From a virus: a DNA stretch of 55,941 nucleotides. Both the position numbers and the translations under genes were made by a program. The stretch's first letter is position 1; each line of letters begins with the position of its first letter. Shown here piece after piece: positions 3-41,450 of the stretch. The notes under the pieces were generated by a model that was not told where the DNA came from, did not search any database, and saw only the letters and a program-made list of their open reading frames with translations. The stretch lies in IMG/VR virus record IMGVR_UViG_3300036715_003593, positions 1-55,941 of that record; one strand, written 5' to 3'.

Positions 3-2741
3 GACTACATGGGTTACATCACCCAAGTGGCTGCCGAAGATCAGTATATAGGATGGGTGTTCAGTGCTTGGCAATTTATTGTCGACGGTACGAATGGCAT
101 TGTCATGCGCCAGTGGGTCAAGTTTGGCGTTGGCTCACCGTTTGTCTATAACGAAGCAACTGTTACGGTAGCGAGTTATCAATCGCTGACCAGTCAGCCG
201 ACATGGACACCGGGTGCGCTGAGCAGCATCGGCATCGGAGGTGATGTACAAGCGGGTGATGCCAATGTCTTTAGCATGACTCACATGAAGGTGTTTAGCC
301 GGTCAACTAAGCCGACTGAAGCTGAAATAAATGCAATCGCGCTGCAAACTTCTGTTGATACTACGGCATGGGGTGATTACCTGATGGAATGGGTATCCGG
401 CGCAGCTGATATATCGGATAGATCAGGCAATGGCAGAAATTTGTCAGTCGGGCTGGGTGCAGTTTCATCTGGTCTTGACGATACAACTTTAGTGCCTGCC
501 GGATATGCGGTCAGACAATCCCCGATCAAAGTTTTTTACGGCGGCACATCTGCCGGCACACTGGCTGCCAGCTTTGAAGTGCCGCCCGTGTCCGGCAATC
601 TCATTGTTGTTGAAGGCGGCTCATCGACAGATAATGGCTCGATTATAATTTCAGACAACAAGGGTAATAATTTTACAGTTATTGTCAGTAATCCAGCGGG
701 CGGAGACCATCCATTTATTGCCTATCTAGTGGTTCCTGCGACATATACCGGAACGTACACGATCACTGCGACAAATCTTGGCGTATCGGCAGGTATGCGC
801 ATATTTGAATGGCAGGGCAATGCGGCTTCCCCGCTAGACTGGGCAGCTACGCCTCGTGATTTAAAAACCTCATTAATCATACCCGCTCCCGATGCAGACA
901 CCTATGCTGGTACACTTATTATCAGCTCGATGGAAACACCCAGTGGCTTTAGTGCTCAGCCTATATATCCGGCAGGATGGTATTGTGATGGCAATGACAA
1001 TGGCGGGAATGGAACTGCTGCTCGCAAAATAACATACGCAGTCGCAACAGAATCAATCTCATGGGCTTTGCAGGCAAGCAGCCCGACGTTTGCTGGCGCG
1101 ATGGTTGGGTTCCGGCCTTATGTTGCCAACCCACCTCCGCTGATTACCCAGCAGCCACAATCGCAGGTCGTGAAAATAGGCGGCACTGCAACATTTAATG
1201 TGATCGACACTTATGCGACTAGTTACCAATGGCAACTTTTCAGCGGGACATGGGGGAATATAAGTGGCGCAACCTCGTCGAGTTATACAACAGGGGCTCT
1301 GACACTGGGAGATGATGGTTCACAGCGGCGTTGTGTGACAACAAATGCATACGGAACGGCAACATCACAGCAAGCTGGGGTAAATGTTCATGCTGCTTAT
1401 AGCCCATGGCGGCGCAGGCAGGCAAGCGGAAAAATAACTAGTAGTAATCTTATTAAATTAAAAGAAGCTGGAGCATCACAGACTGTTGCTGCTAGGTTCT
1501 TTGAAGCGGTCGCGACTGGAACTCAATATAATCAGGCTGTTGCCGGTACACTTTCATTTACCAGTGGTATTGTGTCGCGTGCCACCTCGAAATTTATTAC
1601 GGGCGGATTATCTTTTACTGGAGTCGCCTTAAAACTTACCCGCCGAGCTATAGCAGGCGGCTTGTCATTTTTGGGTACCTTAACCACCAGCCGATTATTC
1701 GTTCGTACAGTTGGCGGTACGCTATCGATGGCTGGTGGTATATCCAAGACTACATCCAAGCTTGCATTCGGCAGCTTGTCATTTACCGGTGGATTAATTA
1801 AGCGCGCTGTAAAATCAATTGCAGGCAGCTTGTCATTTACCGGTGGATTAATTAAGCGCGCTGTAAAATCAATTGCAGGCAGCTTGTCATTTACCGGTGC
1901 GGCGGTAAAGACTACACAAAAAACCATTACCGGCACGCTATCAATATCTGGCGTGCTCGGTGCCATCAAGCAGGCGGGTGGAATGCTTTATACCCGGGCT
2001 GTCGGAGGTGTGCTGGGTTTTTCTGGTGCTAGCACCAAGGCAGTATCTCGTGGTATATCGGGTAGCGTTTCATTCTCTGGCTTGATAGCCAAGAGGTACC
2101 TAAAATCAATACAAGGCGGATTATCATTCACTGGCATCTTGGGCAACATCAAGGCGCGCGTTGTGTCGGTAGGTGGAACGCTTGGGCTTAGTGGTGGAAT
2201 TGGCAAGAAGGTTGGTAAAAAGGTGGCGGGAACTTTAAACCAGATGGGGGTATTGACAAAGCAAACTAGCAAAACTATTGTGGCAAACTTGTCTTTCGCT
2301 GGAGTTCTAACTAGAATAAGAATTCGGTTGCTTTCAATTGGAGGGAGCTTAGGTTTCTCTGGATCCGTTGTGAAAAAAGTGGGAAAAGGTTTGGGTGGAA
2401 CTTTAATCCTTTCCGGAGCAACCGTTAAGAAAATTAATAGAGGCATCATCAGCGGCTTGTCATTTGTAGGGGGAACCTTTAAACTTACTAGCAAGTCAGT
2501 AGTAGGAGGAATATACTTTACTAGCACTCTTTTCAGAATGACCGGTAAAACTGTATCCGGTCAAATTAATTTTATAGGCAATCTAATTACCGCCTTTACA
2601 GGCATGGTAGTTTCTATTGTGAAAAGGATCTTCAAGAGGTCCAGTTTCAAACCTGCCATACTTAGAAAATCGAAATTTGCAGCAGTGGTAGTCCGGAAAG
2701 CTTTTTTCGGTTCCGTTATAAAGAAAACTAGGAGATTCTAA
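3..2741 (+). CDS. Large adhesin / tail- or head-fibre-like protein, 3' part (5' end lies across the window edge)
   Basis: The reading frame is open from base 3, so the first ATG at 9 is probably internal; the true start is likely the ATG at 55675 at the other end of the window. The N-terminal part looks like a LamG/concanavalin-type lectin domain (W- and G-rich beta pattern, about residues 1-130). An Ig-like domain follows at about residues 375-460 (QQPQSQVVKIGG start, Y-QW core). From about residue 510 to 860 the protein is a chain of roughly 18-26-residue repeats of the form GxLSFxGxxxKxxxKxI. The C-terminus is very basic. A role in receptor or surface binding is inferred from this architecture. 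It sits inside the head-gene block rather than with the fibre genes at 19926-22709, so it may decorate the capsid or be an accessory adhesin. Confidence 0.7.
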   Translation, partial: DYMGYITQVAAEDQYIGWVFSAWQFIVDGTNGIVMRQWVKFGVGSPFVYNEATVTVASYQSLTSQPTWTPGALSSIGIGGDVQAGDANVFSMTHMKVFSRSTKPTEAEINAIALQTSVDTTAWGDYLMEWVSGAADISDRSGNGRNLSVGLGAVSSGLDDTTLVPAGYAVRQSPIKVFYGGTSAGTLAASFEVPPVSGNLIVVEGGSSTDNGSIIISDNKGNNFTVIVSNPAGGDHPFIAYLVVPATYTGTYTITATNLGVSAGMRIFEWQGNAASPLDWAATPRDLKTSLIIPAPDADTYAGTLIISSMETPSGFSAQPIYPAGWYCDGNDNGGNGTAARKITYAVATESISWALQASSPTFAGAMVGFRPYVANPPPLITQQPQSQVVKIGGTATFNVIDTYATSYQWQLFSGTWGNISGATSSSYTTGALTLGDDGSQRRCVTTNAYGTATSQQAGVNVHAAYSPWRRRQASGKITSSNLIKLKEAGASQTVAARFFEAVATGTQYNQAVAGTLSFTSGIVSRATSKFITGGLSFTGVALKLTRRAIAGGLSFLGTLTTSRLFVRTVGGTLSMAGGISKTTSKLAFGSLSFTGGLIKRAVKSIAGSLSFTGGLIKRAVKSIAGSLSFTGAAVKTTQKTITGTLSISGVLGAIKQAGGMLYTRAVGGVLGFSGASTKAVSRGISGSVSFSGLIAKRYLKSIQGGLSFTGILGNIKARVVSVGGTLGLSGGIGKKVGKKVAGTLNQMGVLTKQTSKTIVANLSFAGVLTRIRIRLLSIGGSLGFSGSVVKKVGKGLGGTLILSGATVKKINRGIISGLSFVGGTFKLTSKSVVGGIYFTSTLFRMTGKTVSGQINFIGNLITAFTGMVVSIVKRIFKRSSFKPAILRKSKFAAVVVRKAFFGSVIKKTRRF
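1770..1899 (+). repeat. 54-bp tandem duplication inside the adhesin gene
   Basis: Units 1770-1823 and 1824-1877 are identical, and a third partial copy runs from 1878 to 1899. Each unit encodes 18 residues (GSLSFTGG plus a basic linker), which is one period of the protein-level repeat. The surrounding repeats have diverged, so this copy is recent and suggests repeat-number change by slippage or recombination. Confidence 0.9.
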
Positions 2742-25201: not shown

Positions 25202-25900
25202 TTAACCCCCTATTTTTAATTGATTGCGACCAGTTACTTGGTTATTCAAACCGATCCCGTTACCGTATTCTTTACCGGCAGCATAAGCCTTCATATTGAC
25301 ATGAGTGCTTCTACTTGCTTTTGACACCAATTCCGTTCCAGATGCTTTGATGAATGCTTCGTTGGCGTCTTGCTCGGTTTTGTAAAGCCCCACGACTACC
25401 AATGAGGTTGAATCGGAACCTTCTGGTTTGGCTTCCTTAATCATTTCAGCAATCCGCTCGCGAATCTTAGCGGCGACCCCCATTGAAAAAGAACGGGACT
25501 CCGGAGCCAGGTTATGCCCCCAGTTCTTGCGGCACTCTTTTAATACCGAAGCGATTACGTAGTCGGACATGAGTGCCGCGGTGGCCGCGTTGGAAGCCTT
25601 ACCTACGAAGTGGTGCTCAATCTTTGTCCCGTTAATTTTTCGACCGAAATAGTACTTGCAGAAAAATAATTGAGCAATGCCAGACGAAATATTGCGACAC
25701 CAGAGCATCCCATAAGTAGCGTTTACATAATCTTCGCGACCTTCCATCTGACAATGTGCATTCAAGTCTGCCATGTCTAAGTTATGTTTTGCCAACATGC
25801 CGTGTGCCATGCGAAGGGCATTGTCGCGCTCACCTTCAGAAGCACCAGCATCGTTGGCAAGCGCCAGGAGTTTTTTGACTTTTTCGAGTATTGGGTTCAT
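25202..25900 (-). CDS. DUF2786-domain protein
   Basis: The 232-residue product starts ILEKVKKLLALANDAGASEGE and continues NALRMAHGMLAKHNLDMADL, the DUF2786 signature of a short helical domain of unknown function common in phages. The C-terminal part (KASNAATAALMSDYVIASVL, FSMGVAAKIRERIAEMI) matches the associated downstream domain. Start overlaps the neighbouring stop by ATGA. GGAGAATCAAA precedes the ATG. Confidence 0.7.
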   Translation of the reverse strand: MNPILEKVKKLLALANDAGASEGERDNALRMAHGMLAKHNLDMADLNAHCQMEGREDYVNATYGMLWCRNISSGIAQLFFCKYYFGRKINGTKIEHHFVGKASNAATAALMSDYVIASVLKECRKNWGHNLAPESRSFSMGVAAKIRERIAEMIKEAKPEGSDSTSLVVVGLYKTEQDANEAFIKASGTELVSKASRSTHVNMKAYAAGKEYGNGIGLNNQVTGRNQLKIGG

Positions 25901-26172
25901 TTTGATTCTCCTGAAATAAGACTACCGTTTTTATTGATTCCACTAAAGTTATCGTCTTCACATAATGCAAACTGACGACTTTGAACAAACTGAATCGAAG
26001 CTGTATTTGGATTGTAACCTTCCCTTACTGCAGCCTCGATGAACTCTTTTTTGGTGGCATCCGGATTAATTGCAGCAACATATCTAAGTAAAGGTGAGAT
26101 ATGTTTGAAATCGTCAGTGCATTCTTTCGCAAACCAAAAGTCAGCCTGGATAGATGATACAGTTACTCCCAT
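25897..26172 (-). CDS. Small protein with a degenerate GIxxxTAxTQF-type domain
   Basis: The start at 26172 follows GAGGAGAACGAA. The 91-residue product contains HISPLLRYVAAINPDATKKE and REGYNPNTASIQF, which aligns by eye to the C-terminal domain of the early proteins at 34439, 34887 and 35526 (GINxxTAxTQF). The shared domain looks like a small helix-turn-helix module. It sits between DNA polymerase and the DUF2786 gene. Function unknown. Confidence 0.5.
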   Translation of the reverse strand: MGVTVSSIQADFWFAKECTDDFKHISPLLRYVAAINPDATKKEFIEAAVREGYNPNTASIQFVQSRQFALCEDDNFSGINKNGSLISGESK

Positions 26173-26212
26173 TTCGTTCTCCTCATTCACTCTTGTTCGA
26201 ATGATTAGATTA

Positions 26213-28291
26213 TCAGACTTCGTCTTCTTCGTGGCACGCACTTTCGTCTTCTTTTTCGTCTTTTTTTAGATAGCCAATATCATATAGAATTCTTGTTGCC
26301 ATGGCCTCGTATTTAAGGTAATCAACGTCATCAGGGAATGTGTCCGGCAGATTCATACAAGGTCTGGCGCCTTCGCTCAACGCGACCTTGTTACCGGTTT
26401 TAGCGTAAACGATATCACCTTGGACTTGGCTAGAATAATACCATCGGATTAGTTTTCCAAGGAACACACCACTAGTCACCTGTTCACCTAACCCAACCAG
26501 ATCGCCCTTCACCGCACCGCCAGACACAGCTCGCATGGTTGTGAACTGTGTAATGTCTCGGCATTCTGCAATGGTCTCAATCAAAGGCTTACCTGTGGCA
26601 ATAAAGTTTTTAACTGCCTCAACACATATTTCATTGACCGCGTTCTTCTTGGGGGCAGTCGGACCGTAGGCACCTTTTAGTTTAAACAACTTTCCCTTCT
26701 GGGGGGTTTCATACACCGCGATGTAATTATTGATATCGCGGGAATAAGTGGCTTTGTACCGAATCTCTTCTGTAATGAAACCAGTATCTCTTTCCCACTG
26801 CTTGACGATAGCGTTAAATTCGGATTCTTTAGATCGCAAGCATTTAACTACGATACCATCAGTATTGATTGAGGTTACTTCTATCCCAGCTAATTCAAAT
26901 CTCTCCGCCAGCATGAGAATTGAAAGCTGACCGGTAACCGTCACTTGAATCAATAAATTCGGGGCGTAAACAATTGACCACATGCTGCCCAGCTTACCGA
27001 AAGTTCCGTTCGCAACAATCTTCAAGCACTCTGCTACAATAATGTTGCCAGCTTCCTTGGCGCTAATTCGCTCTACCACTATGCCATTGTAGACCAGCAG
27101 GAAATCGTGCCCAAGATTCTCCGGAGCAAGACCTGCATTCAAAATCAACTTCGGGTAATAGGAAGTAGCATCAGTATCCGCGATAAAGTAATCTTCATCC
27201 GCAACATGGGCAACGCTTTTCTCTTGACTATGTAATCCACCGATACCGATTTTATACTTGCTGTTGCCCATCTCGATGACTAATTTTGCCAACTCAGGTG
27301 GCATAACAATCGCGCCATGGAAAGGATCAACCTCGAAAGTAGCATTCCGAACAATGTCCAGAATATGATTCATCAACGGGGTTGAATACTTGATAAAGAT
27401 GGGCACTTGAAACTTGTAAGAGGTGCCAGGAGGTAAGGTGGTCCGCTTTAAGAACTTACGACCAGTAGTGCGTTTAACTTCTGCTGAAATAATAGATTCA
27501 GCCATCTGAGCATCAGAATGAGATCGCAAGTCAACATGGAACCTAGTACTCATCTGTTCGCGGAGTTCGATTTGCTTAATGGTGGCATTATACAAGATTT
27601 CAGTATTATCTAGATCGTTAACACAATATCGACGTAAGATGGTAATCTGATCTTCTGTAAGATAGGTTCCAGGCTTGAAGGGCAGGTCTTGTAACTTCGG
27701 GGCATGAAGTCTTCCTGCACATACTTTCAAGCCCGGTGCCAAGGCGGTCAGTTCGATCAAGTCAATTTGATCGACTTGCAACTTCTTAACCTTGAATTTT
27801 TTATAGACTTCTTTCTCGCGCAATTGCTGGGCGATAATCATATCGGTAGCCGCCCAAAGGGCTTCGGAGTCATGACCTGCTAGAGCAACCGCGGTTACTG
27901 GAAAGTCATAACTTAGACCGTTGAAGTTAACGATAAGGAAGTTTTCAAGAATCCACTTTAGTTTTGGAATATCCAACGTTCTTCCGAGCGGTTGGTTATC
28001 CACTTCGAAATAAACCACCTTCTTTGATTGGATACCTTTGAAAGCGAACAGGGCATAGTTCGGGTAAGACTCGATGTCAAATACTAATCGTTCTCGGGTT
28101 TGGCTGGCTTGATATAGTTCTTGGTCAGAATACAGGTTAGGTCGCCAGGCACGCGCCTCCTCCAAGTCAGGTAGGTAGGCAGGGCTTTCCCAGAACCTCA
28201 AAGGTGGGATGGCTTTCGGCTTTTCTTTTTTTGGTGGCTTTGGCGCCGGCGTGTCGTCCCACCAAAATCCTTTCACGTCAGTACGTGCCAT
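26213..28291 (-). CDS. Family B DNA polymerase with proofreading exonuclease
   Basis: The start at 28291 overlaps the clamp-like stop (TAATG). The 692-residue protein has exonuclease motifs VFDIESYPN, NFNGLSYDF and YCVNDLDNTE, then polymerase motif A TDATSYYPK, motif B KIVANGTFGK and motif C INTDGIVV. Motif C has Asn where most family B enzymes have the first Asp of DTD; the second Asp, the main metal ligand, is kept. The acidic C-terminus may bind the clamp. It replicates the phage genome and is cotranscribed with the base modification genes. Confidence 0.85.
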   Translation of the reverse strand: MARTDVKGFWWDDTPAPKPPKKEKPKAIPPLRFWESPAYLPDLEEARAWRPNLYSDQELYQASQTRERLVFDIESYPNYALFAFKGIQSKKVVYFEVDNQPLGRTLDIPKLKWILENFLIVNFNGLSYDFPVTAVALAGHDSEALWAATDMIIAQQLREKEVYKKFKVKKLQVDQIDLIELTALAPGLKVCAGRLHAPKLQDLPFKPGTYLTEDQITILRRYCVNDLDNTEILYNATIKQIELREQMSTRFHVDLRSHSDAQMAESIISAEVKRTTGRKFLKRTTLPPGTSYKFQVPIFIKYSTPLMNHILDIVRNATFEVDPFHGAIVMPPELAKLVIEMGNSKYKIGIGGLHSQEKSVAHVADEDYFIADTDATSYYPKLILNAGLAPENLGHDFLLVYNGIVVERISAKEAGNIIVAECLKIVANGTFGKLGSMWSIVYAPNLLIQVTVTGQLSILMLAERFELAGIEVTSINTDGIVVKCLRSKESEFNAIVKQWERDTGFITEEIRYKATYSRDINNYIAVYETPQKGKLFKLKGAYGPTAPKKNAVNEICVEAVKNFIATGKPLIETIAECRDITQFTTMRAVSGGAVKGDLVGLGEQVTSGVFLGKLIRWYYSSQVQGDIVYAKTGNKVALSEGARPCMNLPDTFPDDVDYLKYEAMATRILYDIGYLKKDEKEDESACHEEDEV

Positions 28292-29504: not shown

Positions 29505-30440
29505 TTAAAAAAGTCCCAGTTGGTCGGGAATAAATTTTGGCTCAGATCCTTTTTCTTCCGAAACCATTTTACCAAGTTTATCGAAAGCGAACATGTTATA
29601 TGTCCAACGCCCGAGATAAGTTTCTTGCATACGTTCCAAGTCAACCCCTTCGTTAGTTAATTTGTCCTCAACTGCTTGACGTAAAATGGGAGGCAAGGTA
29701 GTTATATGTTGCCCTTCCACCTTTCGTTGCGGAGATTGGTTTGAAACGTTAATGACTCTGGCTTCCGGTAATAGGAGCATTCCACCCACTCTCGCAATCT
29801 GAACCCATGAAGACGAGTCTACAGAGTACCATGGGTAGCGCCGCATCAAAATTGGCGTGGTTAAGCCGAAGCCATGGACTTTGAGTTTGGGTCTACCTGA
29901 ACCATCGGTTAAATATTTTCCCCAGATTTCATCCAGCCATAAAAGTAATTGCGGAGTAGACTGAGCTACCATTCCTCCCAAGGTTATGTACTTATAGTTC
30001 TTAATGTAGTGCTCAAGGTAACGGGGATCCTCGCCAAAGTGATAGCACGGCAAAGGTCGGACCCCCATCGATTCCATATGAAGCTGATTCTCATAGGTAC
30101 CTTGGGCATCCCCGATCGCGTCCATCACGGAAGCCAAAATATCCCCATCGTCTTTCCGGATTATGTCATCATTCTTTTTGATATAATCACAATAAGCCAC
30201 CATGTCAACTTTGGCACCCAGTGACCAAGCAGAGAACGCACCACTGTCTAGGAAGACCTGAATTCCGTCCGCCCGAATCATGTCAACCGATCTTTGTCTT
30301 CCAATGTAGTGGTAACTCTCCAAAAGGTTACCAGCGCCGGCACAGAGACGTTGGTATTTTTCGTTTTCAGTTAGACGTTCCCAAAGGGTGCCCCCAATAC
30401 AGAAACCAGCAGTATAGATTCCGGCATTATAAAGTTTCAT
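29505..30440 (-). CDS. dpdA: DpdA-like DNA guanine transglycosylase
   Basis: The 311-residue protein has features of the phage DpdA/TGT-like family: GIQVFLDSGAFSAWSLG with the candidate catalytic Asp, a conserved YKYITLGGMV stretch, then KVHGFGLTTPILMRRYPWY and SVDSSSW. DpdA swaps guanine in DNA for a 7-deazaguanine base, by analogy with tRNA-guanine transglycosylase. It is the last enzyme of the queE-queC-queD-folE cluster here. It overlaps the upstream DUF6884-like gene by 14 bp. The DpdA subfamily cannot be decided by eye. Confidence 0.8.
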   Translation of the reverse strand: MKLYNAGIYTAGFCIGGTLWERLTENEKYQRLCAGAGNLLESYHYIGRQRSVDMIRADGIQVFLDSGAFSAWSLGAKVDMVAYCDYIKKNDDIIRKDDGDILASVMDAIGDAQGTYENQLHMESMGVRPLPCYHFGEDPRYLEHYIKNYKYITLGGMVAQSTPQLLLWLDEIWGKYLTDGSGRPKLKVHGFGLTTPILMRRYPWYSVDSSSWVQIARVGGMLLLPEARVINVSNQSPQRKVEGQHITTLPPILRQAVEDKLTNEGVDLERMQETYLGRWTYNMFAFDKLGKMVSEEKGSEPKFIPDQLGLF

Positions 30441-31026
30441 GTTTTACCAGCCTGATAATATTTCCATCTATTATTTTATCATATCCACGGTGCTTATGTT
30501 TATCACTTAGAACACTTTTGATCGCTTTAAAATAAGAACGATCCGGCAAGAAAACAGTTTTAAGGAAAGCATCTAAATCCTCAACTGTGCCACCTGAATC
30601 TTGAAAAAAGTCCAAGGTTATCTGTCGAATTGATCTTGGAGGATTTCCAGAAAAATACAACTCTCTGGATGCGAAATCTGCTTTCAATCTGTTGATGGCA
30701 CTTTCCGCTAACCCATATGTCATCTTCGGTAACAATCGTTGGTATTGGTCAGGGGCATCTGAAAAATAATCATCCGATCCAAACCAGTAACCTGAGCCTT
30801 CTGGATATTCTCCGAGCAATCTGTTTTGTGCCCGATGATCATAAATCTCGATTTGAGTTTCGGGAAGAATGAAACCGTAGACAGCTGACCGAATCCATAA
30901 AGTAAAACCCTGAATAGCGGCCAGCTCATCCAAATGTCGAAACATCTTCGAACCTGAATAAATTTCCCGAGCTGTGCTACCCTCAATTTTTGTTTTGGGG
31001 CAGGTTATAAGTAGATTGGGTTTCAT
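30427..31026 (-). CDS. DUF6884-like protein adjacent to dpdA
   Basis: The 199-residue protein begins NLLITCPKTKIEGSTAREIY-SG, followed by TLWIRSAVYGFILPETQIE and YD, the N-terminal pattern of DUF6884 proteins, which often have a [ST]C-KTK start and an SAxYG motif. Its coupling to dpdA (14-bp overlap) and to the GTP cyclohydrolase gene (ATGA) suggests a role in making, inserting or recognising the modified base. The exact role is unknown. Confidence 0.55.
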   Translation of the reverse strand: MKPNLLITCPKTKIEGSTAREIYSGSKMFRHLDELAAIQGFTLWIRSAVYGFILPETQIEIYDHRAQNRLLGEYPEGSGYWFGSDDYFSDAPDQYQRLLPKMTYGLAESAINRLKADFASRELYFSGNPPRSIRQITLDFFQDSGGTVEDLDAFLKTVFLPDRSYFKAIKSVLSDKHKHRGYDKIIDGNIIRLVKHETL

Positions 31027-31940
31027 TTACGCTTCGGTATCAACGACATGAACTCTGCGCGAGTTGCTGCCTCAGCCATGAAGAGACCTCGCATCGAAGA
31101 TGTTGTGGTCATTGTGCCATGCACACGAGCACCGCGAGAGCTCATACAAGTATGTTCACATTGAACTACTACAGCTACCCCTCGCGCTTCCAGATGCTCT
31201 GCCAAGGCATCTGCGATTTGATTAGTCAAACGTTCCTGAACCTGAAGGCGGTGGCTGAATGCCTTTACCAACTTTGGTATCTTGGATAGACCAACAATGC
31301 GACCATTTGGTATGTACGCAACATGGGCAACTCCGTGGAAACGAGCCATGTGGTGCTCACAGAAACTTTCCACAGGGATGCTATCGATAATAATCATCTC
31401 ATCACAACCTTCTGCACCGTCCGTGAAGGTCTTGAACAAGCCAGCGATGTCGGTGGTATAACCATCGAACCATTCCTGATATGCCTTGGCTACTCGCTTC
31501 GGGGTTTCTAGTAAGCCTTCACGGTTTGGATCCTCGCCGATGAACTGAAGCAGGCGACGAATATTGTCTTCGATGCTGCTTTCTGAATCGCCTTCCCAAG
31601 GAAACACCACCCAATCATATGCCTCTCTGTAAATCGGATCGGTCTTATCGATTAGAGCATAAAATGATTTGCCTGGATACATATCGCAATAACGTTCCAT
31701 AGTTGCGCCGGAGTCAATAATGTCGTCGACAAAAATGTCCGCCTCTTCTGGGGTGAGCGCAATCCTGATGTCCAGGTGCGTATAGTTAGCAGCAGCTATC
31801 ACCGCATATAAAGCAGGTATACCACCTCGAGGAATTGCGTAAGCTCGAATATGATCTTTGCCATTCATCTGGATCTTGCTGGCAACGATTACCGCTAGAT
31901 CCATAATATCGTTGTGGTTTAAAATTGTTTTTGCGGACAT
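31023..31940 (-). CDS. folE: Fusion of xanthine/guanine-type phosphoribosyltransferase with GTP cyclohydrolase I
   Basis: The start at 31940 (MSAKTILNHNDIM) gives a 305-residue protein, with a 65-residue upstream extension rejected because it overlaps queD. Residues 1-118 form a compact PRT domain: AIPRGGIPAL, the PRPP loop ADIFVDDIIDSGATM at 67-81, and a C-terminal DWVVFPWE as in Gpt-type enzymes. Residues 120-305 are GTP cyclohydrolase I with EDPNREGLLETPKRV, zinc ligands in SFCEHH and QCEHTC, and KIPKLVKAFSHRLQVQE. The second half makes dihydroneopterin triphosphate, the first precursor of 7-deazaguanines. The fusion may channel guanine to GTP or act on a deazapurine base; that is speculation. 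Confidence 0.8.
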   Translation of the reverse strand: MSAKTILNHNDIMDLAVIVASKIQMNGKDHIRAYAIPRGGIPALYAVIAAANYTHLDIRIALTPEEADIFVDDIIDSGATMERYCDMYPGKSFYALIDKTDPIYREAYDWVVFPWEGDSESSIEDNIRRLLQFIGEDPNREGLLETPKRVAKAYQEWFDGYTTDIAGLFKTFTDGAEGCDEMIIIDSIPVESFCEHHMARFHGVAHVAYIPNGRIVGLSKIPKLVKAFSHRLQVQERLTNQIADALAEHLEARGVAVVVQCEHTCMSSRGARVHGTMTTTSSMRGLFMAEAATRAEFMSLIPKRK

Positions 31941-31942
31941 GG

Positions 31943-32368
31943 TTATTCCTTTATAAATGATGCTGCACATTTGCGAGTTTCTTCGAATCGCACCGAGATA
32001 AGAACTGCCCCTGTTCCAGCCAATTGAACTGGTCCAACCACTTCGACCAAATACTTGGCGAGATTTTCTGCGGTAGGATTGAAAGGGACTATTACTGTCC
32101 CGACCGGATCGATCTCCGGCAAGGTCTTTGACCATGGATCATTCTCCCACAAAAGGAATTTATGATCCCAGTTATCTTCGAGCCATTGAGCCAGCAACGT
32201 TTTCATCACCGAAAAGTCAAGAACCCGCCCTACTGAATCCAAACCATCGGAAGTAATTGTAAAATGAACACGGCCGTTATGACCATGCATCATGCTGCAT
32301 TTTGATTCGTGTTGGTATACCCGATGACCGTACGAAAAGTCATGATATCTATCTGCGGTGAAAGTCAT
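31943..32368 (-). CDS. queD: QueD, 6-carboxy-tetrahydropterin synthase
   Basis: The 141-residue protein carries the zinc histidines at 15 (YGHR), 28 and 30 (MMHGHN), the catalytic Cys24 (SKCSMMHGH) and a C-terminal VRFEETRKCAA with the conserved Glu. It turns dihydroneopterin triphosphate into 6-carboxytetrahydropterin, the QueE substrate. It overlaps queC by ATGA, and its stop lies 2 bp before the PRT-folE start. All key residues are present. Confidence 0.9.
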   Translation of the reverse strand: MTFTADRYHDFSYGHRVYQHESKCSMMHGHNGRVHFTITSDGLDSVGRVLDFSVMKTLLAQWLEDNWDHKFLLWENDPWSKTLPEIDPVGTVIVPFNPTAENLAKYLVEVVGPVQLAGTGAVLISVRFEETRKCAASFIKE

Positions 32369-33138
32369 GCTAATACTCCTTTGCGATATGAATCATAGTT
32401 GGAAGATAAAGGGAGATTCATCAAACCCTCAGTGTGTGCGCGCAGCACCAACGGATCAGGCTGACCAGCATCCTCAAATCCTTTGGCGCGCAGCACATTG
32501 GCATGATTCATGTCGGTGGGAGGATACTTGCCATCGTAACTTGTATGAGAATAGGCTAGTGCTTCCCAGCAGCCGGGCAATGAGCGCGCCATGTCCACAG
32601 TTTCAGCTTTCGATAAATTCATCAGTGGGGTATGGATAAAGATTTCAGGAGTTCCCCTGTGGTCATGGCCAAGGGCGGTATTGATATATTGCTCAGTAGT
32701 ATAAATGAAGTTTGGGCGACAATCATCGTAGTTAGCACCGTCCATTTGGCACACGCCGGTCATAAGATTAGGAATGCCAAGAGCTTCAGCCCGGTTGGCT
32801 GCGATCGTCAAAAAAAGAGCGTTGCGCATTGGCACAAAAGTCAGCTCTCTGCGATTGCCGATTTTGTTACCCATCTGTTCAGCGTTCTCATATTGCTCCA
32901 AACTTGAATTGCTGGTTAAAGGAGACATGGAGATCAAGCAATTCGGAACCTCGACAATTTCATGGGAGGATACGTTAGCCAGCTGTGCCACCTTTATTGC
33001 AGCCTCAATTTCGATAGCATGGCGCTGGCCATAATCAAAAGTGATGGCATGCACTTCAGAGTACTGTTGCTTTGCCAAAAAGAGGCAAGTGGTTGAATCC
33101 TGCCCTCCCGATAAGACAACTAAAACCTTTGTTTTCAT
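32365..33138 (-). CDS. queC: QueC-like 7-cyano-7-deazaguanine synthase variant lacking the zinc cysteines
   Basis: The 257-residue ATP-pyrophosphatase-type protein has the PP loop LSGGQDSTTC (9-18), FDYGQRH and ELTFVPMRNALFL. Normal QueC makes preQ0 from 7-carboxy-7-deazaguanine using ATP and ammonia, with a zinc site of four Cys. Here those positions read Ser200, Thr208, Asn211 and Asn214 (TSYDGKYPPTDMNHANVLRAKGF), so the zinc site is gone while the surrounding LRAKGF is kept. It may make a different derivative (carboxamide, carboxy or free deazaguanine) or work without zinc. Position in the operon supports a pathway role. Confidence 0.85.
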   Translation of the reverse strand: MKTKVLVVLSGGQDSTTCLFLAKQQYSEVHAITFDYGQRHAIEIEAAIKVAQLANVSSHEIVEVPNCLISMSPLTSNSSLEQYENAEQMGNKIGNRRELTFVPMRNALFLTIAANRAEALGIPNLMTGVCQMDGANYDDCRPNFIYTTEQYINTALGHDHRGTPEIFIHTPLMNLSKAETVDMARSLPGCWEALAYSHTSYDGKYPPTDMNHANVLRAKGFEDAGQPDPLVLRAHTEGLMNLPLSSNYDSYRKGVLA

Positions 33139-33139
33139 T

Positions 33140-33847
33140 TCATTCGACTCCTATGATTTTGTGAACTTGTAATTGTAAAAGGTAACCATATTTTAACACA
33201 CTTTCTGTTATTGCCTTTAGATTAGATAGATTCTTTTCATCATCTTGCTCATCGGCAGGTTGCAGATAAATCGGACCATCAAATCCTGCCGGTGGGCGTG
33301 CGAGGCGAGGGTTTGCGGGGTGATCGAGTGCTGACAGGGGTAATCCATCATCCTCTGCTAAGTCTCCCGCTTTGCCCACGTATTTAAGGGCGGAGATATA
33401 CGGTGCCAAGTTTTTATTAATTGTGCCAGTCTTTGGACTACAAACCACTGTGATTCCATCATAAGGCAAATCGCGATATAATGATCCATTGGTTTCAATT
33501 TGAACGTCGAAGTTGAATTCCAATAAAATGGAAACGGTTGGTTTAACGTTTTGCCGAAGGGGCTCCCCGCCAGTGATTACCACTAACTGTCTTTCCTGAC
33601 CAGGCTCCCAATCTTCCGGCAAAAGAGAATTGACTTCTTCCAACAGTTGACGGGGGGAAAGCCAAACACGCTCCGAGGTATAATTTGTATCACAAAGAGG
33701 GCAAGCCAAGTTACAGCCAGCTAGACGGATGAAAACTGCTCGCCTGCCAGTAAAAGGACCTTCTCCTTGAATGGTATTGAAAACACTATGGACTGCTAAA
33801 ATTCCAGAGTCATCGTGAGTGGATTTTTCTATTTTTTGCGTATTCAT
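33140..33847 (-). CDS. queE: QueE, 7-carboxy-7-deazaguanine synthase (radical SAM)
   Basis: The start at 33847 follows GGAGATCTT; upstream residues of the longer frame are not needed. The 235-residue protein has VHSVFNTIQGEGPFTGRRAVF and the 4Fe-4S motif CNLACPLCDT (CX3CX2C), followed by ITGGEPLRQ. It rearranges 6-carboxytetrahydropterin to 7-carboxy-7-deazaguanine. It is the first gene of the modification-replication operon, behind an extended -10 promoter. Confidence 0.9.
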   Translation of the reverse strand: MNTQKIEKSTHDDSGILAVHSVFNTIQGEGPFTGRRAVFIRLAGCNLACPLCDTNYTSERVWLSPRQLLEEVNSLLPEDWEPGQERQLVVITGGEPLRQNVKPTVSILLEFNFDVQIETNGSLYRDLPYDGITVVCSPKTGTINKNLAPYISALKYVGKAGDLAEDDGLPLSALDHPANPRLARPPAGFDGPIYLQPADEQDDEKNLSNLKAITESVLKYGYLLQLQVHKIIGVE

Positions 33848-33868: not shown

Positions 33869-33896
33869 ATTATAACACAATCTCCTTGGTACCCAA
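33869..33896 (-). promoter_or_regulatory. Sigma70-type promoter of the queE-to-polymerase operon
   Basis: On the minus strand TTGGGT (33896-33891), 16 bp, then TGTTATAAT with an extended -10 TG (TATAAT at 33874-33869). The queE ATG lies 22 bp further on. No structure resembling a preQ1 riboswitch is seen between promoter and start. Confidence 0.7.
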
Positions 33897-33917: not shown

Positions 33918-33943
33918 AAAAAGAGACCGCCACATGGCGGTCT
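33918..33943 (-). terminator. Intrinsic terminator downstream of the structured gene-free region
   Basis: Read on the minus strand, AGACCGCC, loop ATGT, GGCGGTCT (33943-33924), then CTTTTT (to 33918). It would end transcripts arriving from 34783 or from inside the structured region, just before the queE promoter. Confidence 0.8.
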
Positions 33944-33944
33944 T

Positions 33945-34438
33945 AAAGTGCAGCAGCAAATTGAAGTTGATGTTTCGACAGTTGTTCAACTCCCCGATAT
34001 TTCAAAAGACCTTCGGCGCTATCTTGCGATATGAAAGGACGCTTGCGTCTTTGCCCTCGGGGTGAGCGGGGCTACCTGAGTCTTTCCTACTCCAGAGCGT
34101 CCTCCGGATTAATGGGGTTTTCGATCCCCCGCAGATTTGACACCACGTCAGGCACTTGAAACACCAACAGGTCGGAAACGCTTTAATCAGCACGCTGAGT
34201 GCTACTGACATCCTTTGGATAGTCTTCGCTATCAAACGTTCCCGCCTCTTGGTGCTACTTTTGAAGACCTTCCTGTTTCATTTAAGCTGCCCTGAAGCTC
34301 ATCTGCTTAAAACGCATTCCATATAGGTGCTAGTTCCAAGTTCTATTGCTGCGGAGGAATCACTTAATCTATACACAGGGAGGTCTTCAAAAGGGACTGG
34401 CCGAAACCAATCCCACCTCAACAACCACGTCGAAGGTA
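33945..34438 (-). ncRNA. Candidate large structured non-coding RNA (about 490 nt), gene-free
   Basis: No convincing ORF fills this stretch. On the minus strand a 13-bp stem (CTTTTGAAGACCT, 34393-34381, with its complement at 34270-34258) closes a domain. That domain contains a 7-bp TTTAAGC/GCTTAAA hairpin (34311-34305 with 34287-34281). Further down are GATAG/CTATC, AGCAC/GTGCT, GGGG/CCCC, GACGC/GCGTC and a TATC-GCAA-GATA hairpin with a GNRA tetraloop. AGGTCTT recurs near 34010 and could compete for the outer stem. A terminator follows at 33943. It may be an independent RNA or a long 3' UTR of the 34439-34783 gene. I found no match to a known class by eye. Confidence 0.5.
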
Positions 34439-34783
34439 TTACTGTGCCGGTACTGCTTCAGCTGCCGGTACTGCTTCGGCCTTAGCTTTTTTAGCCTTTG
34501 GCTCTTTTGGTGCCTTTGGTGCCTTTGGTGCAGCCACGATACCGTGGAACTTGCACCAGCGACCAAACTGAGTTGCAGCAGTGGTAATGTTGATACCTTC
34601 GGCTTCAGCTTTGCTCAACACTTCTGCGCGCTTGGCAGGTGCGCCAGCTGTTGCAGAAATTTCATCCGCAATTACCCAGATACGTTCTGTGGCAGTACCT
34701 TTGCCAGGACGGGATACACCATTTTGTTCGATTTTTGGTGCCTTAGGTTCTTTTACTTCAGGTGCTGTGGCGGTTTGTGTCAT
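34439..34783 (-). CDS. Small basic early protein with GIxxxTAxTQF domain
   Basis: The 114-residue product has Ala/Pro/Lys-rich ends (APKAPKAPKEPKAKKAK) around a core IWVIADEISATAGAPAKRAE then EGINITTAATQFGRW. The core recurs in the two neighbours upstream. The basic tails suggest nucleic acid binding. GGAGTTTCAAC precedes the ATG, and a promoter lies at 34842-34868. The gene-free structured region follows its stop. Confidence 0.65.
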   Translation of the reverse strand: MTQTATAPEVKEPKAPKIEQNGVSRPGKGTATERIWVIADEISATAGAPAKRAEVLSKAEAEGINITTAATQFGRWCKFHGIVAAPKAPKAPKEPKAKKAKAEAVPAAEAVPAQ

Positions 34784-34886: not shown

Positions 34887-35489
34887 TTAGATCCCAGTGA
34901 TAGTTTTCTTCCACTTGGCGAATTGTGTAGCAGCCGTGGCAGAATTGATTCCAGTTGCTGCACATTCTTCCATCACTAATTTACGATCAGGCATACTGTT
35001 ACCTGCTGCCTGATAAAGCCGGTCTGCAATTTCCCAGACTTGACCGGTGACACCTTTTGCTTTTGGTCGCTCTGCTTGCGGAGCAGGAATCCGACCTCCT
35101 TCAGTTGAACTGGGAGGAGGTACGGAGCCTGAATCGTTTATGGCAAGGGATGTCCACAATTCCGCTACTTTCGCAATCAGGTCATCTAGCGACTCAGTAT
35201 CGGTCTGGAACTTCTTAGCCAACTCAAAACACCCTTGTGCAAGCTCGTGATAATCCTCTGGAGGGGTTTGACCGCCAGATAATTGATAATACAAATACTG
35301 AAGTTGTAATTTATAAAGTTTCGAGAAGCTGCGCCCTTCCAAAGGTGGGGCAATCACTTGACGACCGGCAGCTTTCAAAATATATCCGCGGTGTACTGCC
35401 CTGCGGATATCTGTTATATAAAGCAGTTTTATTTCCACAACATTGGTGACATCCAGAATCATATACCAGTAAACAGCAGCTGTGCTCAT
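34887..35489 (-). CDS. Two-domain early protein with C-terminal GIxxxTAxTQF domain
   Basis: The 200-residue product has an N-terminal mixed domain (MILDVTNVVEIKLLYITDIRR, GRSFSKLYKLQLQYLYYQL) and a C-terminal domain VWEIADRLYQAAG, then CAATGINSATAATQFAKWKK. It is preceded by GGGAGAATGAA. It stands between two other proteins of the same domain family. Function is unknown; the N-terminal half matches nothing I recognise. Confidence 0.6.
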   Translation of the reverse strand: MSTAAVYWYMILDVTNVVEIKLLYITDIRRAVHRGYILKAAGRQVIAPPLEGRSFSKLYKLQLQYLYYQLSGGQTPPEDYHELAQGCFELAKKFQTDTESLDDLIAKVAELWTSLAINDSGSVPPPSSTEGGRIPAPQAERPKAKGVTGQVWEIADRLYQAAGNSMPDRKLVMEECAATGINSATAATQFAKWKKTITGI

Positions 35490-35525: not shown

Positions 35526-36200
35526 TTATTTAGATTTGGCTTCATTAGCAAGACGGGTTGCTTCTTCTTCCTTGCAAACGCTTAACCATGCTTGATACTG
35601 GGTACGGGCAGTATAGTAAGCTATACCTTGTTTAACGCATTCTGCTAGAACTGCGCCGCGCTTAACCAGTGGGTTAGCAGCCTTCATATCTATTGCGATG
35701 CCCCATACGGTTTTGCAAGGATTTTCGATTGTGGAAACGTGGGTGATCGGTGTGCTGGATTTCTTGGCACTATGATTAAACGACCAATCACATTGGTGAC
35801 AACCACCAACCGTATCCTCGTTAATAATGCGACCCATACTGGCATTTGAATTTTCAGCTTCACCTTGATACAATTCAGTCGAACCGCATTTTGGGCAGCA
35901 AGCGTGACCTTCTTCATTTATTGCGAAGTCGTCCAAGTTAACTTCTTTTTTTGCAGCTTCCGCAGCTTCGAGGGCGGCGAGCAGGTCAAGGGCGGTTTTC
36001 TTAGCTGGAACTTGTTGATCAATTATTTCAAACTCGATTTCAGATTTGTTTTTAACTGATCCAGCTAATCCGGTTGCTTTAGCTTCGCGAGCTAACGTAC
36101 GACTTTTATAGCTACCGACAGCACAGTCTTCGTTGACAATAACCCATGAATCTGTTTCCAAGAGAAGGGCGAAAGCTGCTGTGATTTTAACTGTTTTCAT
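35526..36200 (-). CDS. Early zinc-ribbon protein with C-terminal GIxxxTAxTQF-type domain
   Basis: The start at 36200 (MKTVKITAAFALL) follows AAGGAGCTTC; longer frames lack a ribosome site. The 224-residue product has an N-terminal beta domain (residues 1-60), then a zinc ribbon at about 100-142 (CCPKCGSTELY and GGCHQCDW). The C-terminal domain is TVWGIAIDMKAANPL, then CVKQGIAYYTARTQYQAW. It is driven by a good promoter at 36260-36288. A DNA- or RNA-binding regulator is plausible. Confidence 0.6.
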   Translation of the reverse strand: MKTVKITAAFALLLETDSWVIVNEDCAVGSYKSRTLAREAKATGLAGSVKNKSEIEFEIIDQQVPAKKTALDLLAALEAAEAAKKEVNLDDFAINEEGHACCPKCGSTELYQGEAENSNASMGRIINEDTVGGCHQCDWSFNHSAKKSSTPITHVSTIENPCKTVWGIAIDMKAANPLVKRGAVLAECVKQGIAYYTARTQYQAWLSVCKEEEATRLANEAKSK

Positions 36201-36259
36201 TTTGAAGCTCCTTATAATGTGGTTGTTGTATCGATCAGGTTCTCCCAATCGATGTACCC

Positions 36260-41197: not shown

Positions 41198-41225
41198 CTT
41201 GTTTCTCCTTATTAAAGTTTACAAA

Positions 41226-41450
41226 TTAGAACGACCATGACCCCGACCATGACCGCGACCATGACCATGACCATGACTGTGACCCCGACAGTGACCATGA
41301 CCCCGACCGTGACCGCGACCGCGACCATGACCGCGACCGCGACCATGACCCCGACCGTGACCCCGACCGCGACAGTGACCCCGACAGTGACCCCGACAGT
41401 GACCCCGACAGTGACCGTGACCATTGTTCTCGCAACATAATGGCGTTCAT
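41226..41450 (-). CDS. Low-complexity Ser-X dipeptide-repeat ORF, doubtful gene
   Basis: The ATG at 41450 overlaps the stop of the upstream gene (TAATG), as in coupled genes. After MNAIMLREQW the product is a run of SR, SG, SL and SW dipeptides to its end, encoded by the hexanucleotide array. The start context is good, but the sequence could equally be non-coding repeat. If made, it is an RS-like disordered protein, very unusual in a phage. Confidence 0.3.
   Translation of the reverse strand: MNAIMLREQWSRSLSGSLSGSLSGSLSRSGSRSGSWSRSRSWSRSRSRSGSWSLSGSQSWSWSWSRSWSGSWSF
41233..41424. repeat. Hexanucleotide tandem array, 32 units of GACNNN
   Basis: The plus strand reads GACCAT, GACCCC, GACCGC, GACAGT, GACCGT and similar six-base units without interruption from 41233 to 41424. 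The first two bases never vary and the third is always C. Higher-order periods such as GACCCC-GACAGT repeat at the right end. All reading frames give dipeptide repeats (Asp-X, Ser-X, Val-X, Thr-X). Confidence 0.9.

What the first reader, a model, noticed from the sequence alone, without database searches (positions are those of the whole stretch)
29505..33847. Phage 7-deazaguanine DNA modification pathway fused to the replication operon
queE, queC-like, queD, a folE fusion, a DUF6884-like gene and a DpdA-like transglycosylase are overlapping genes behind one promoter, followed by clamp and DNA polymerase. Pathway enzymes are established; in phages they replace guanine in DNA and block host restriction. 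No queF or amidotransferase gene is seen. Co-transcription with the polymerase suggests modification is timed to replication.
Basis: partly seen in the sequence, partly recalled or inferred. Interest (0 to 1): 0.75.

Follow-up and report, generated by a model that had tools for sequence, protein, structure and literature searches.

The report
Phage DNA-guanine modification cassette with recycler
This virus carries a complete, already known kind of gene set that swaps guanines in its own DNA for 7-deazaguanines to resist restriction enzymes, with two extra parts that seem not to have been described: an enzyme domain that could recycle the discarded guanine and a probable enzyme for a final chemical step.

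Summary
Minus strand 33,847-29,505 encodes QueE, QueC, QueD, a FolE fusion, a DUF6884 protein and a DpdA1-type DNA transglycosylase, then a small membrane protein, sliding clamp and polymerase. Pathway and clamp-polymerase linkage are established: this is the Queuovirinae cassette (CAjan, VpKK5, NP1), and pathway genes are collinear in 142 of 143 dpdA loci. Timing of modification to replication stays untested.

(1) FolE's partner is a xanthine-guanine phosphoribosyltransferase (AlphaFold pLDDT 93.7; top Foldseek hits all XGPRT) with intact PRPP loop. The fusion recurs in about half of dpdA loci, unmentioned in the papers I could read. I propose it returns guanine released by DpdA to GMP, hence GTP for FolE. 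Two other dpdA phages carry divergent DUF6884 genes in the same region, but the window's match to DpdC models is weak. (3) QueC belongs to a phage subtype lacking the zinc cysteines.

A structured RNA of about 460 nt, without Rfam match, lies just upstream of queE. Known kind, new variant; chemistry needs mass spectrometry.

The parts
33140..33847 (-). [quoted passage not shown]
   Evidence: phrog_2076 4e-50; NCBIfam QueE models 7e-23 and weaker, under their cut-offs; 52% identical to CAjan QueE
32365..33138 (-). queC, bare (no glutamine amidotransferase domain), P-loop SGGQDS intact, the zinc cysteines (CxxCxxC) replaced by [24 protein letters not shown]
   Evidence: Pfam QueC 2e-50; TIGR00364 over cut-off; motif comparison
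31943..32368 (-). queD, 6-carboxytetrahydropterin synthase
   Evidence: PTPS 1e-23; phrog_2389 1e-47
31023..31940 (-). XGPRT-FolE fusion: N-terminal guanine phosphoribosyltransferase (31940-31575) plus GTP cyclohydrolase I (about 31574-31023)
   Evidence: FolE 4e-70; PRT profile to XGPRT chains 2e-7; model pLDDT 93.7; Foldseek top hits XGPRT, VIA Z 11.4; PRPP loop DIFVDDIIDSGAT
30427..31026 (-). DUF6884 protein, candidate DpdC-like dPreQ0 hydratase; CxxxK (CPKTK) and SAxYG (RSAVYG) motifs present
   Evidence: PF21818 2e-6, 1e-7 in the genome search; PADLOC DpdC 0.0045, weak; DUF6884 = DpdC domain in PMC11888242
29505..30440 (-). dpdA, DpdA1-type DNA-guanine transglycosylase
   Evidence: phrog_887 6e-73; 49% identical to CAjan DpdA, 53% to VpKK5; invariant residues in 9 phage homologues
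29237..29503 (-). 88-aa membrane/holin-like ORF of unknown role, seen at the same slot in several relatives
   Evidence: phrog_7045 2e-12; hits at the same slot in L003, L015, L025, L026, L034
28291..29259 (-). DNA polymerase processivity factor (clamp)
   Evidence: phrog_947 5e-65
26213..28291 (-). DNA polymerase
   Evidence: phrog_1252 4e-192
33869..33877 (-). extended -10 promoter element TGTTATAAT in front of queE (weak -35 TTGGGT at 33896-33891)
   Evidence: read from the sequence; not tested
33924..34390 (-). structured non-coding RNA ending in an intrinsic terminator (33943-33924), directly upstream of the queE promoter; its 5' end is approximate
   Evidence: fold z -5.0; conserved in L015, L016 at the same place; 13 of 59 pairs with double-sided changes; no Rfam match

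Best explanation
[quoted passage not shown] shown for homologues, inferred here). Two additions are inferred. First, the XGPRT domain fused to FolE takes up the guanine that each exchange releases and, with PRPP, makes GMP; kinases return it to GTP, the substrate of the fused FolE, so modification draws less on the cell's GTP (about 0.5). Second, the DUF6884 protein between folE and dpdA acts like bacterial DpdC and hydrates the nitrile of dPreQ0 to the amide, so the final mark would be dADG (about 0.45). The confidence given is for the core pathway together with at least one of the two additions.
For: Core: all five enzymes present and intact, in the gene order of CAjan, whose DpdA is proven (PMC6884629). 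XGPRT domain: profile finds solved XGPRT chains at 2e-7; model pLDDT 93.7; the first 23 Foldseek hits are XGPRT, VIA Z 11.4; the W-(I/V)-x-x-PW(D/E) stretch of XGPRT aligns; PRPP loop in 48 of 51 and WxxxPWE in 47 of 51 distinct fusions; fusion in 67 fetched loci, duplicates included; unfused PRT beside folE in L069 and in the queD-queE-PRT-folE-dpdA run of a distant Flavobacterium phage. DUF6884: motifs conserved, PF21818 2e-6; DUF6884 is the DpdC domain, and DpdC hydrolyses dPreQ0 to dADG; the gene overlaps both folE and dpdA; the only other DUF6884 genes among about 125 dpdA records lie in the same region (L056 clamp/pol, L052 helicase/queE), and those match DpdC models at 2e-8 and 2e-10.
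Against: The window's own match to DpdC models is weak (0.0045), no usable structure was obtained for it (pLDDT 34), and no close relative was found in phages, IMG/VR or genome contigs. DUF6884 genes also occur in many mycobacteriophages, where no link to dpdA was shown, so the domain alone does not mean DpdC. Other dpdA phages manage without it. For recycling: GMP needs two kinase steps before FolE can use it, host enzymes can salvage guanine anyway, and half of the dpdA loci lack the domain. The fusion correlates with lineage or QueC type, so its spread is not independent evidence at each locus.
Confidence: 0.65

Rival explanations
1. The final mark is dPreQ0, as in CAjan and Rosebush. DUF6884 is a YaaA/YfjM-like DNA-binding or lesion-binding protein that happens to sit in the variable slot between folE and dpdA.
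For: Phages with the minimal FolE, QueD, QueE, QueC, DpdA set carry dPreQ0 (PMC6884629); the slot holds unrelated genes in other phages, such as a homing endonuclease in NP1; weak DpdC score; Pfam links DUF6884 to YaaA and to lesion binding by YfjM.
Against: Overlapping start and stop with both pathway neighbours; all three DUF6884 genes found among about 125 dpdA records lie in the modification-replication region, which by position alone would happen about 1% of the time (rough estimate, 12 kb of 55 kb, cubed).
Confidence: 0.35
2. The zinc-less QueC stops at the first half-reaction and delivers 7-amido-7-deazaguanine as free base, which DpdA inserts directly; DUF6884 then has another role.
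For: The CxxCxxC zinc site is absent and replaced by a motif conserved in 38 of about 95 distinct QueC sequences from dpdA loci; the amide is the known intermediate of the QueC reaction (established knowledge).
Against: The protein passes the QueC equivalog cut-off and much of the rest of the enzyme is conserved; no phage with this subtype was found measured in the papers I could read.
Confidence: 0.12
3. The phosphoribosyltransferase domain acts on a 7-deazaguanine base, making a nucleotide for the polymerase to incorporate, or merely senses PRPP or nucleotides to regulate FolE.
For: Phosphoribosyltransferases accompany preQ0 genes in toyocamycin clusters (from memory); a modified-dGTP route was considered in PMC6884629 for other phages.
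Against: Fold and base-pocket stretch are those of XGPRT, and dpdA, which makes the nucleotide route unnecessary, is close by in every fetched locus (the loci were fetched by dpdA).
Confidence: 0.2

Closest known systems
Queuovirinae dPreQ0 cassette (Escherichia phage CAjan, Seuratvirus)
   Same: Order helicase, queE, queC, queD, folE, dpdA, small gene, clamp, polymerase; bare QueC; DpdA1 49% identical
   Different: CAjan has a preQ0 transporter gene, plain FolE, canonical zinc QueC and no DUF6884 match
Vibrio phage VpKK5 and Nipunavirus NP1 cassettes
   Same: Same order and the same XGPRT-FolE fusion, 54-55% identical
   Different: No DUF6884 match; NP1 has Gat-QueC, predicted dG+; the fusion is annotated only as GTP cyclohydrolase
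Bacterial Dpd system (DpdA, DpdB, DpdC)
   Same: DUF6884 is the domain reported for DpdC, which hydrolyses dPreQ0 to dADG (PMC11888242, PMC12839542)
   Different: No DpdB or restriction genes seen among the ORFs scanned; the window's DpdA is the phage type; the DpdC match is weak
E. coli XGPRT (Gpt)
   Same: Fold, PRPP loop, PRGG loop, W-I/V...PW(E/D) stretch
   Different: The phage domain is shorter, about 20% identical, and fused to FolE

Membership tests
[quoted passage not shown]
Queuovirinae-type 7-deazaguanine DNA modification cassette | Gene order queE-queC-queD-folE-dpdA-clamp-polymerase | tested here: met
   same order in CAjan, VpKK5, NP1, R7M and 142 of 143 loci
Queuovirinae-type 7-deazaguanine DNA modification cassette | 7-deazaguanine present in virion DNA | not testable with these tools
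   needs LC-MS; only a metagenome contig exists
DpdA1 (phage DNA-guanine transglycosylase) | Sequence homology to experimentally proven phage DpdA | tested here: met
   49% to CAjan DpdA over full length, phrog_887 6e-73
DpdA1 (phage DNA-guanine transglycosylase) | TGT fold | tested here: inconclusive
   profile reaches solved bacterial DpdA 7ui4 only at E 0.29 on the GGM stretch; DpdA was not folded
XGPRT-type phosphoribosyltransferase | Type I PRT fold closest to XGPRT | tested here: met
   (VIA ties XGPRT and HGXPRT)
XGPRT-type phosphoribosyltransferase | PRPP-binding loop | tested here: met
   FVDDIIDSGAT, kept in 48 of 51 distinct fusions
XGPRT-type phosphoribosyltransferase | Converts guanine and PRPP to GMP | not testable with these tools
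   enzyme assay needed
DpdC (dPreQ0 hydratase) | DUF6884 domain with CxxxK and SAxxG motifs | tested here: met
   PF21818 2e-6 though under cut-off; CPKTK, RSAVYG
DpdC (dPreQ0 hydratase) | Match to DpdC models over most of the protein | tested here: inconclusive
   one model, E 0.0045, residues 17-63 only
Canonical QueC | ATP P-loop SGGxDS and equivalog score | tested here: met
Canonical QueC | Four-cysteine zinc site | tested here: not met
   replaced by [16 protein letters not shown]
dG+ phages (Gat-QueC, ArcS or QueF-L) | Amidotransferase gene | tested here: not met
   none among the ORFs scanned; small ORFs not all scanned

The most novel reading that the evidence does not exclude
The phage runs a closed guanine cycle: DpdA ejects guanine from DNA, the XGPRT domain captures it on the same polypeptide that starts preQ0 synthesis, and a phage DpdC-like enzyme finishes the mark as dADG, a dedicated last step not assigned in phages in the papers I could read. 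A zinc-independent QueC and an upstream structured RNA would belong to the same unit.
Probability: 0.22. Interest if true: 0.65.

Novelty: new variant of a known kind. Interest (0 to 1): 0.48.

Why it matters
It would explain why so many of these phages fuse a salvage enzyme to GTP cyclohydrolase: every exchanged base costs one GTP and releases one guanine. A rough count gives about 1.2 million guanines, or 1.9 mM in a 1 fL cell, per infection if 30% of Gs are replaced in 150 progeny (assumptions mine). It would also name a candidate for dADG formation, which PMC6884629 left unassigned in phages, and make both testable with single genes in E. coli.

Tried and rejected
A structure for DUF6884 from its single sequence failed (pLDDT 34), so no fold search was made with it. 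Direct homologue searches for it found nothing in phages, IMG/VR or genomes; searches with the L052 and L056 proteins returned only their own contig, an identical copy, or nothing. A three-sequence DUF6884 profile found no solved relative. Rfam found nothing in the window. The ncRNA profile and pattern found no relatives beyond L015 and L016. No covariance model was built, because only three sequences exist. I considered that DUF6884 presence goes with one QueC type and dropped it: the window is zinc-less while L052 and L056 are canonical. Three key papers (Cui 2023, Gedara 2023, the 2024 MMBR review) are not held, so I could not check whether they mention the fusion, a phage DpdC or the QueC subtype. 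Rosebush QueC could not be fetched.

Full report
Check of the observation. The window is an IMG/VR virus record of 55,941 bases. Family searches give QueE, QueC, QueD, FolE, DUF6884 and DpdA, followed by a small membrane/holin-like ORF, clamp and polymerase. Upstream are helicase, Cas4-type exonuclease and single-strand-binding protein genes. A perfect extended -10 element stands about 20 nt before queE, after an intrinsic terminator, so one promoter for the run is plausible.

What is ordinary. The cassette and its link to clamp and polymerase are the hallmark of the Queuovirinae and kin. Annotated phages from Burkholderia, Vibrio, Pseudomonas, Rhizobium, Alteromonas, Shewanella, Stenotrophomonas and Achromobacter hosts, and E. 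coli phage CAjan, show the same order. Of 143 fetched loci with dpdA (some from the same contig), the pathway genes present are collinear in 142, and clamp lies downstream of dpdA in 137. DpdA is 49% identical to CAjan DpdA, which is required for dPreQ0 in about 32% of Gs and for restriction resistance (PMC6884629). The core function is therefore close to certain by homology, though not measured here. The loci were fetched by DpdA sequence, so they sample the DpdA1 family only.

The FolE partner. Residues 1-122 of the fusion align with 28 homologues; the model has pLDDT 93.7. Foldseek's first 23 hits in the PDB are XGPRT, and VIA-align gives Z 11.4 with XGPRT and 11.3 with HGXPRT, so those two are tied by structure. 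A profile search places XGPRT first by sequence, aligning W-I-V-x-PWE with W-I-E-Q-PWD. The PRPP loop is kept in 48 and the WxxxPWE motif in 47 of 51 distinct fusions, so the domain is probably catalytic. The fusion occurs in 67 fetched loci, including duplicates, and in about 33 isolate records, annotated mostly as GTP cyclohydrolase. L069 has the two proteins separate and adjacent, and a distant Flavobacterium phage has queD, queE, PRT, folE and dpdA in one run. This points to a functional bond with the pathway. Since DpdA releases one guanine per exchange, salvage of that guanine is the simplest role; this is inference. Searches of the held papers found no mention of it, but three central papers could not be read.

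The DUF6884 gene. It matches PF21818 at 2e-6, just under cut-off, with both motifs that Pfam describes, one of them with its first residue changed. A genome-mining paper gives DUF6884 as the domain of DpdC, and another states that DpdC, filed there under DUF328, hydrolyses dPreQ0 to dADG. PADLOC's DpdC model matches the window protein only weakly. In about 125 dpdA records, DUF6884 was found in three, always inside or at the edge of this region: the window, L056 between clamp and polymerase, and L052 between helicase and queE. They share 19-24% identity with the window protein, which suggests separate acquisition or fast divergence. L052's protein matches one DpdC model over most of its length and is the better case. 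Mycobacteriophages have DUF6884 genes too, so the domain alone is not proof. I put dADG at about 0.45 and dPreQ0 at about 0.35.

QueC subtype. The window's QueC lacks the CxxCxxC zinc site; [24 protein letters not shown] stands there, and 38 of about 95 distinct QueC proteins from these loci share the pattern. The XGPRT fusion accompanies 27 of those 38, against 5 of 26 bare canonical ones, which may be lineage rather than function.

Upstream RNA. Between about 34,390 and 33,924 lies a non-coding stretch; folded with its flanks it has z -5.0, and it is conserved with L015 and L016 in the same place. Thirteen of 59 predicted pairs show double-sided changes among only three sequences. Rfam has no match. 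It ends in its own terminator, so it may be a separate transcript rather than a leader.

Verdict. Established pathway, confirmed; new variant because of the recycling fusion (undescribed in what I could read) and the probable phage DpdC-like gene. Co-transcription with the polymerase is a general trait of the group and does not by itself show timing.

Noticed in passing
window 33924-34390 (-): Structured non-coding RNA of about 460 nt with its own terminator, conserved in two related contigs (L015, L016) just upstream of queE; no Rfam match.
   Followed up: partly
L010 4383-6125: The XGPRT-FolE protein of this relative carries an intein-like insert of about 270 residues exactly at the active-site Cys of the HCEHH motif.
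   Followed up: no
window 34439-34783, 34887-35489, 35526-36248 (-): Three adjacent ORFs share a C-terminal module of about 45 residues (VWEIADRL...AATQFAKWKK type); a similar one is at 25897-26241 and in L052 4090-4539. Unknown function.
   Followed up: no
L052 3374-4036: A better DpdC candidate in another dpdA phage (PADLOC DpdC 2e-10, one long match), between helicase and queE, next to a canonical bare QueC.
   Followed up: partly
L032 4035-5489: A QueC of the zinc-less type in a protein of 484 residues, possibly a fusion with another domain.
   Followed up: no
window 41221-41430: Array of short units (GACCATGACCCC type) encoding a low-complexity stretch, 12 overlapping copies in the repeat search.
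   Followed up: no
window 1770-1931: Two exact 54-nt tandem copies plus a diverged one inside the 910-aa ORF at the start of the window.
   Followed up: no
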